Source: Alphaproteobacteria bacterium (lineage in GTDB: Bacteria > Pseudomonadota > Alphaproteobacteria > Micropepsales > Micropepsaceae). From it: 33,298 bases of DNA. Shown piece after piece: positions 9,417 to 9,544 of the stretch. The translations under genes were made by a program, and so were the position numbers. The stretch is from contig JAGWZW010000039.1 in the NCBI GenBank assembly GCA_018971835.1, positions 1 through 33,298 of the forward strand. The letters run 5' to 3'. Below the pieces are notes generated by a model, which saw only the letters and a list, made by a program, of their open reading frames with translations, searched no databases and had not been told where the DNA came from. How positions within the stretch are numbered: the first letter of the stretch is position 1; each line of letters begins with the position of its first letter.

Positions 9417-9445
9417 TTGACGTGCCCGGCCGAAAAGCCTATATC
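9417..9445 (+). promoter_or_regulatory. Sigma-70 promoter of the serC-serA operon
   Basis: TTGACG (-35, 9417-9422) and TATATC (-10, 9440-9445) are separated by exactly 17 bases. This predicts a start near 9452 and a 5' leader of about 40-47 bases before serC. It is among the best consensus promoters in the window. Confidence 0.65.
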
Positions 9446-9457
9446 GCCCGTGGGCCA

Positions 9458-9544
9458 CGCCTCCCCAACGAGGTGCTATCATTCTGAAAGGAATGACTAT
9501 GACCGGAAATCGTCCGGCCGTGCGCCCCGCACGGCCTTTTTTTT
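9458..9544 (+). promoter_or_regulatory. serC leader: hairpin plus terminator inside the start of the gene
   Basis: The predicted transcript first forms a 6-bp hairpin (CGCCTC 9458-9463 with GAGGTG 9470-9475, one G-U pair, loop CCCAAC). Then come the ribosome-binding site and start codon. A second hairpin follows: GGCCGTGCG (9516-9524), loop CCC, CGCACGGCC (9528-9536), then eight T (9537-9544). That second structure is a canonical intrinsic terminator but lies within codons 6-16 of serC. A conserved serC RNA motif has been described upstream of serC in alphaproteobacteria; I recall it as hairpin-based but cannot confirm here that this is the same motif. Confidence 0.6.

What the first reader, a model, noticed from the sequence alone, without database searches (positions are those of the whole stretch)
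9417..9544. Complete intrinsic terminator encoded inside the first 18 codons of serC
Directly visible: a 9-bp perfect GC stem (9516-9524 with 9528-9536), a 3-base loop and eight consecutive T, starting 17 bases after the serC ATG. The T-run is read as Pro-Phe-Phe-Ser, which aligns with the normal SerC N-terminus, so the gene really starts before the terminator. The operon's own promoter (TTGACG-17-TATATC) is just upstream. Inference: transcription of serC-serA could be stopped early unless a ribosome starts quickly and melts the hairpin, so initiation rate (possibly sensed through the upstream CGCCTC/GAGGTG hairpin) would set operon expression. This would be an attenuator whose terminator is coding sequence.
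Basis: partly seen in the sequence, partly recalled or inferred. Interest (0 to 1): 0.8.

Follow-up and report, generated by a model that had tools for sequence, protein, structure and literature searches.

The report
Stop signal hidden inside serC gene
In one family of environmental bacteria, the first codons of the serine-making gene serC also spell a strong 'stop copying' hairpin, kept by evolution together with the RNA leader just before the gene, which suggests that within the first hundred bases the cell decides whether to make the serine enzymes at all.

Summary
In detail: a 9-bp stem, 3-base loop and T8 (9516-9544) lie inside serC, 18-46 bases from its ATG, directly behind the known serC leader RNA (RF00517). 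It is not chance. In the same family (Micropepsaceae; the window's genus includes Rhizomicrobium electricum) T8 is intact in 70 of 72 readable leader-bearing sequences of five genera; two other genera (9 sequences) mostly lack the terminator. For the 67 that score as terminators, 3 of 33,500 synonymous recodings score as high. Pro-Phe-Phe is CCT-TTT-TTT almost without exception, though these codons are rare elsewhere in the gene. A pattern search of 84,980 species genomes gave 67 hits, all in serC. Three relatives without the leader also lack T8. Other hairpins with a T-run stand at the same codons in another family (7 of 11). So an attenuator whose terminator is coding sequence is well supported by comparison. 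That ribosome initiation controls it is plausible but unproven: in E. coli such an early terminator was only weakly relieved by translation. Double compensatory changes are scarce (one). I found no RNA data for these bacteria, and one key paper on the serC motif could not be read.

The parts
9417..9445 (+). Promoter: TTGACG (9417-9422), 17-base spacer, TATATC (9440-9445)
   Evidence: Sequence; TTGAC 35-36 bases before the leader GGG in 72 of 81 family loci. Not listed by the consensus scan because the -10 ends in C.
9448..9500 (+). serC leader RNA (Rfam RF00517), ending in the ribosome-binding site and start codon
   Evidence: cmscan 55.9 bits against gathering score 35; match in 84 of 96 family genomes
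9458..9475 (+). Leader hairpin P1: CGCCTC (9458-9463) with GAGGTG (9470-9475)
   Evidence: RNA fold
9479..9496 (+). Leader hairpin P2: 9479-9485 with 9490-9496, GAAA loop; holds the Shine-Dalgarno AAGGA
   Evidence: RNA fold; RBS sequestration proposed by Corbino et al. 2005
9499..10656 (+). serC, phosphoserine transaminase (385 aa)
   Evidence: NCBIfam NF002841.0 682 bits and TIGR01365.1 660 bits, both over cut-off
9516..9536 (+). Stem-loop of the intragenic intrinsic terminator (codons 6-13 of serC)
   Evidence: conservation
9537..9544 (+). T8 tract of the terminator (within codons Pro-Phe-Phe-Ser, 13-16)
   Evidence: T8 in 70 of 72 family sequences (71 of 73 with L040)
10660..12240 (+). serA, phosphoglycerate dehydrogenase, second gene of the operon
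   Evidence: NCBIfam TIGR01327.1 697 bits
12263..12291 (+). Ordinary intergenic terminator after serA

Best explanation
The hairpin plus T8 is a real intrinsic transcription terminator written in the codons of serC and forms the output part (expression platform) of the serC leader RNA. RNA polymerase starts just before the leader, makes about 95 bases and then either stops at the T8 or goes on into serC-serA. The leader, whose second hairpin holds the ribosome-binding site, decides: if translation starts at once, the ribosome (18-33 bases from ATG to stem) interferes with the hairpin and transcription continues; if the ribosome-binding site is closed, transcription ends. SHOWN by comparison: the site exists, is under selection beyond the protein, and goes with the leader. 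INFERRED: that it terminates in the cell, that termination is regulated, and that the ribosome is what relieves it (I give the last step alone about 0.45; the conserved terminator itself about 0.9).
For: Family loci: 67 of 72 sequences of genera g1, g2, g4, g5 and g7 score as terminators, against on average 1.0% (maximum 4.8%) of synonymous recodings; for these 67, 3 of 33,500 recodings reach the observed value. Codons: Pro CCT 72 of 72 (84 of 1,173 elsewhere in the same genes); the codon before the conserved Phe is TTT in 70 of 72, the conserved Phe is TTT in 71 of 72 (130 of 680 elsewhere). Codon identity between species is 0.98 for Arg-Pro-Phe-Phe against 0.58 elsewhere. Stem third bases vary almost only where pairing survives; 95.9% of cells paired against 32-57% when slid. 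Pattern search in the 84,980-species collection: 67 hits, 67 in frame in serC. Three family genomes with serC but no leader match: none has T8, and they nest among terminator-bearing relatives; 0 of 18 serC starts without a leader match score as terminators. A different hairpin plus T-run at the same codons in another family, 7 of 11. Li et al. 2015: terminators in the first 100 bp of a coding region can function efficiently in E. coli.
Against: I found no transcript data for these bacteria. In E. coli translation lowered an early intragenic terminator by only about 10%, so relief by a ribosome would need a polymerase pause or other rates. Covariation is weak by the strict test: one pair with a double change, and 26 of 500 shuffles reach it; the outermost pair is lost in 4 of 19 distinct sequences. 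Plain stem codons are only slightly more identical between species than others (0.67 against 0.58), and the fold test of the region is noisy. Genera g6 and g3 keep the leader but 8 of 9 do not score as terminators, nor do 84 of 89 leader-bearing serC starts sampled outside the family, so the leader can work without it. The 72 sequences are relatives, not independent; the joint losses of leader and T8 are one or two events.
Confidence: 0.6

Rival explanations
1. A terminator relieved directly by the leader RNA (with or without a ligand or protein), by an antiterminator fold, rather than by the ribosome: a transcriptional switch.
For: The nascent 79-base RNA of the window is predicted to pair leader GGCC with the first bases of the terminator's 5' arm; the leader reads GGGCCAC in 71 of 72 sequences of the terminator-bearing genera but GGGACAC in the 9 sequences of g6 and g3, which mostly lack the terminator. 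The weak effect of translation in E. coli leaves room for it.
Against: The pairing has probability over 0.5 in only 23 of 72 sequences, and no single alternative fold dominates. GGGCCAC is also common in leaders without a terminator (41 of 84 such class sequences).
Confidence: 0.2
2. An unregulated partial terminator or polymerase pause that only sets the basal level of the operon, or lets the ribosome catch up.
For: Strong early terminators work in translated genes; nothing here measures regulation.
Against: Absence together with the leader suggests that it belongs to a regulatory unit.
Confidence: 0.15
3. Coincidence of protein and codon constraints: Arg-Pro-Ala-Arg-Pro-Phe-Phe happens to spell hairpin and T-run.
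For: The Arg-Pro-x-Arg-Pro repeat favours self-complementary codons; start-of-gene codons are often AT-rich (recalled). TTT is also raised at the conserved Phe outside the family (55 of 89 against 215 of 791), where most sequences have no terminator.
Against: 3 of 33,500 recodings reach the observed score; CCT and TTT are rare in the same genes; Phe-Phe without a leader is coded TTC-TTC, TTT-TTC or TTC-TTT (L277, L278, L284, L294).
Confidence: 0.02
4. It is the terminator of the upstream gene rpoH, placed late.
For: In the window rpoH (8443-9387) ends 128 bases before the stem and no other terminator-like site over score 20 was listed between them. In 36 of 67 pattern-selected loci an rpoH match lies somewhere upstream on the same strand, 211 to 4,803 bases away.
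Against: It lies within 1 kb on the same strand in only 8 of the 53 loci with at least 1.2 kb of upstream sequence (the loci were chosen by the terminator pattern). A promoter and the leader stand in between.
Confidence: 0.02
5. A DNA palindrome bound by a regulator.
For: Perfect inverted repeat in the window.
Against: Frequent C-G to T-G and T-A to T-G changes break the DNA palindrome but keep RNA pairing, and T8 is one-sided.
Confidence: 0.02

Closest known systems
serC leader RNA motif, Rfam RF00517 (Corbino et al. 2005, PMC1273637, passages read; called an orphan riboswitch candidate in PMC7266159, passages read)
   Same: The leader here is a member by Rfam's own score, upstream of serC-serA with a near-consensus promoter.
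   Different: The passages that I could read give ribosome-binding-site sequestration only and name no terminator for serC. An updated consensus (Greenlee et al. [quoted passage not shown]
Ribosome-mediated attenuation with a terminator inside a coding region: bmrB of Bacillus subtilis (PMC4191407, passages read)
   Same: An intrinsic terminator inside an open reading frame limits expression of the operon, and translation of that frame affects it.
   Different: bmrB is a 53-codon leader peptide gene with its terminator in the 3' part and antiterminator folds; here the frame is the enzyme gene itself and the terminator is at its start.
ampC attenuator of E. coli (recalled, not read here)
   Same: Ribosome binding near the start of the transcript relieves an early terminator, coupling expression to growth (recalled).
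   Different: There the terminator lies in the untranslated leader, not in the enzyme's codons (recalled).
tR2 placed 30 bp inside a coding region, E. coli (Li et al. 2015, PMC4824070, abstract and one section read)
   Same: Similar geometry: an intrinsic terminator within the first 100 bp of a translated frame, and it works.
   Different: Artificial construct; translation lowered termination by only about 10%.
DUF1127 uORF attenuation in Sinorhizobium meliloti (PMC12218461, abstract read)
   Same: Alphaproteobacterial attenuation proposed to monitor ribosome availability at a start region.
   Different: Uses an upstream ORF and termination between it and the gene.

Membership tests
serC leader RNA (RF00517) | Covariance model score at or above the curated 35 bits | tested here: met
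   55.9 bits, model positions 1-52 of 52
serC leader RNA (RF00517) | Directly upstream of serC-serA, start codon within about 11 bases of the last hairpin | tested here: met
   P2 ends 9496, ATG 9499; SerC and SerA identified
Intrinsic terminator | GC-rich stem followed at once by a T-run | tested here: met
   (score 58.8; formula after d'Aubenton-Carafa as recalled, own script)
Intrinsic terminator | Transcript 3' ends at the T-run | not testable with these tools
   One literature search for Rhizomicrobium, transcriptome and serine gave 2 unrelated listings
Transcription attenuator | Lies between promoter and most of the structural gene; kept as a unit with a regulatory leader | tested here: met
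   Comparative only:
Transcription attenuator | Termination changes with a signal | not testable with these tools
   Needs experiment
Ribosome-relieved attenuator | Translation initiation lowers termination | not testable with these tools
   Geometry allows it (stem +18 to +33); E. coli precedent weak
Leader-peptide attenuator (trp type) | Separate short leader ORF with codons of the end product | tested here: not met
   No ATG in the leader before 9493; the two GTG triplets of the window's leader are not kept in many relatives (by eye)
Transcriptional riboswitch with antiterminator | Conserved alternative pairing exclusive with the terminator | tested here: inconclusive
   23 of 72 sequences over probability 0.5

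The most novel reading that the evidence does not exclude
The long-unsolved serC leader is a switch whose output in some lineages is transcription termination inside the enzyme gene: coding sequence and even the amino acids (Phe-Phe for the T-run) have been bent to build a terminator, independently in at least two alphaproteobacterial families, so that closing the ribosome-binding site also stops transcription without Rho.
Probability: 0.5. Interest if true: 0.8.

Novelty: new variant of a known kind. Interest (0 to 1): 0.68.

Why it matters
The serC leader has been an orphan since 2005: none of seven tested compounds changed the structure of the Agrobacterium RNA (Corbino et al.). A conserved terminator at a fixed place gives a simple read-out, a short RNA of about 95 bases against full-length mRNA, to search for its signal with purified polymerase, with or without ribosomes. 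It would also be a natural case of an intrinsic terminator built from the codons of a biosynthetic enzyme, a clean system for asking how fast a first ribosome must arrive to save a transcript.

Tried and rejected
Rejected or made unlikely: rpoH terminator, chance from protein and codon usage, DNA palindrome, and a second intragenic terminator in this genome: the only other sense-in-frame site over score 20, in L261, lies between two genes when read by eye. An antisense 859-codon frame opposite serC-serA made my simple gene caller label the serC site 'antisense'; I treat that frame as spurious. The same caller makes all in-gene labels rough.

Led nowhere or stayed weak: a coding hairpin CCGGNC-NNNN-GNCCGG in other alphaproteobacteria: folding of the 12 codons before Phe is a little stronger than recodings (mean z -0.81; 19 of 89 with p<0.05; four control windows +0.03 to -0.54), but pair counts hardly exceed shuffles. 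In the family itself the same fold test gives mean z -1.81 and 49 of 72 with p<0.05, controls -0.83 to +0.32. The leader antiterminator was not consistent. The order search returned the same 96 genomes as the family search. Literature: 10 of 10 searches used; no title or abstract listed showed a terminator inside serC; Greenlee et al. 2018 was not held, so I cannot say that this is unpublished.

Rows dropped: of 85 family places in 84 genomes I took 83 (not G028, nor one of two places in G055); L083 (contig end) and L040 (N bases; T8 present) were left out of the 72+8+1 counted. Of 111 class genomes outside the family with a match I took 90 (L084-L173); L158 did not parse, leaving 89. L160 was parsed with too late a start; the same genome was tested again as L243 with the same score. 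Of 12 f37 loci L254 did not parse, leaving 11. Of 22 loci fetched for serC without a leader match, 4 (L280, L295, L297, L298) did not parse; my simple pattern saw a leader-like stretch in L284 and L292.

Full report
WHAT IS THERE. The window carries rpoH (8443-9387), a promoter (TTGACG 9417-9422, TATATC 9440-9445), the serC leader RNA RF00517 (9448-9500, 55.9 bits), serC (9499-10656) and serA (10660-12240), then an ordinary terminator at 12263-12291. Within serC, 17 bases after the first base of the ATG, lies GGCCGTGCG-CCC-CGCACGGCC followed by T8 (9516-9544). The predicted fold of 9447-9544 has the two leader hairpins and this terminator (z -3.2). The genome belongs to the family Micropepsaceae: contig G016:C1, of the window's own genus, has the same length, 646,677 bases, as the Rhizomicrobium electricum DSM 21034 contig found by pattern.

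IS IT MORE THAN CHANCE IN THIS GENOME. In 299,081 bases of the same genome (20 stretches plus the window) the site has the highest score of the 10 terminator-like sites above zero on either strand (58.8; the next, intergenic, 55.2); no other site over 20 lies in the sense of a real coding region, as far as rough gene calls and reading by eye can tell. T or A runs of eight or more occur twice in these bases.

CONSERVATION IN THE FAMILY. 84 of 96 family genomes have the leader. Of 81 sequences that I could read from leader into serC, 72 belong to genera g1, g2, g4, g5 and g7, 8 to g6 and 1 to g3. T8 is intact in 70 of the 72 (exceptions L019 and L051) and 67 of 72 score as terminators; of the other five, four keep T8 and one (L019) keeps a stem. 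Of the 9 in g6 and g3, one scores as a terminator (L031), with another stem. A pattern for hairpin and T8 was found 67 times in the 84,980-species collection; all 67 are in frame in serC ([16 protein letters not shown]), 66 of them with a leader-like stretch upstream by a simple pattern.

SELECTION ON THE NUCLEOTIDES. With the protein fixed and codons drawn from the same genes, on average 1.0% of recodings make any terminator (maximum 4.8% for one gene); for the 67 scoring genes 3 of 33,500 recodings reach the natural score. Pro before the run is CCT in 72 of 72 (7% elsewhere in serC); the two Phe are TTT in 70 of 70 and 71 of 72 (19% elsewhere). Between species 98% of the Arg-Pro-Phe-Phe codons are identical against 58% of conserved residues elsewhere; the best of 27 other four-codon windows reached 78% against 96% for this one in the same subset. 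The plain stem codons are only slightly more identical than elsewhere (0.67 against 0.58), but their third bases vary in the way pairing allows: Ala GCC/GCT opposite G, Ala GCA/GCG opposite T, Pro CCC/CCT opposite G (GCA is 6% of Ala codons elsewhere). On 19 distinct sequences 95.9% of pair cells are paired against 32-57% after sliding; one pair shows a double change (C-G to A-T in L019), the outermost pair is lost in 4 of 19, and 26 of 500 shuffles reach the same covariation. So strict compensatory evidence is thin; codon evidence is strong.

LEADER AND TERMINATOR GO TOGETHER. Of 12 family genomes without a leader match, four have a serC match and three of these reach the gene start. All three lack T8: CCA-TTT-TTC (hairpin kept, L277), CCT-TTC-TTC (L278), CCC-CAC-TTC (L279). 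In a SerC tree they sit inside the family clade (95/94), L277 with L279 as sisters (100/98) and L278, on a long branch, in the same five-row group with two terminator-bearing rows (99/96); bootstrap values had not settled. That is one or two losses. Among all 18 parsed serC starts without a leader match, none scores as a terminator. The reverse does not hold: most leaders elsewhere have no such terminator (84 of 89).

OTHER LINEAGES. Outside the family 5 of 89 leader-bearing serC starts score as terminators against 0.16 expected from recodings; two of the five are of one genus. In family f37, found through L111, 7 of 11 parsed sequences do, with quite different stems such as GCGGCCG-x-CGGCCGC or TACGGCCG-GCT-CGGCCGTA and shorter T-runs; recodings reach the natural score in at most 0.1% of 1,000 tries for each of these seven. 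f37 lies elsewhere in the tree, so a terminator at these codons probably arose more than once. Two of three f4 sequences also have one; two f123 sequences have nearly the window's hairpin but a displaced T-run and do not score.

HOW IT MAY WORK. Counting the A of ATG as +1, the stem starts at +18 (46 of 72) to +33 and T8 ends at +46 to +61; 62 of 72 have 92-100 bases from the leader's GGG to the end of T8. The known leader is thought to hide the ribosome-binding site (Corbino et al. 2005). The simplest joint model is that an open site lets a ribosome start and disturb the hairpin while a closed site lets transcription stop. Against this stands Li et al. 2015: in E. coli a terminator 30 bp after an ATG kept most of its efficiency, translation lowering it by about 10%. 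Either a pause lets the ribosome arrive in time, or the leader relieves the terminator in another way. A leader-arm pairing is predicted for the window but is not consistent (23 of 72). In S. meliloti, another family, a 143-base 'mRNA leader' transcript overlapping RF00517 was sequenced from size-selected RNA (SmelC653, PMC2873474, passages); this shows that short serC 5' RNAs can exist, not that they end at a terminator.

VERDICT. The structure is real, selected and tied to the leader. Calling it an attenuator whose terminator is coding sequence is well supported by comparison; the signal and the part played by the ribosome remain open.

Noticed in passing
L087, L092, L101, L122, L125, L131, L133 (serC starts of other alphaproteobacteria): A different coding hairpin CCGGNC-NNNN-GNCCGG in codons Pro-x-x-Arg-Pro, not followed at once by a T-run; may be a further element of the serC leader.
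   Followed up: partly
L182 and L223 (same MAG, GZL_FP_2_bin.34); G055 has two RF00517 matches: Two serC leaders with terminator in one assembly; could be duplication or contamination (G055 is listed with contamination 6).
   Followed up: no
window 9439-12018, - strand: An 859-codon open frame antisense to serC-serA, probably a by-product of high G+C codon usage.
   Followed up: no
L277 (G043): serC without a leader match that keeps the full 9-bp hairpin but has a shortened T-run, as if the terminator were decaying.
   Followed up: partly
window 6417-6488, - strand: A tRNA gene (63.1 bits, Rfam RF00005).
   Followed up: no
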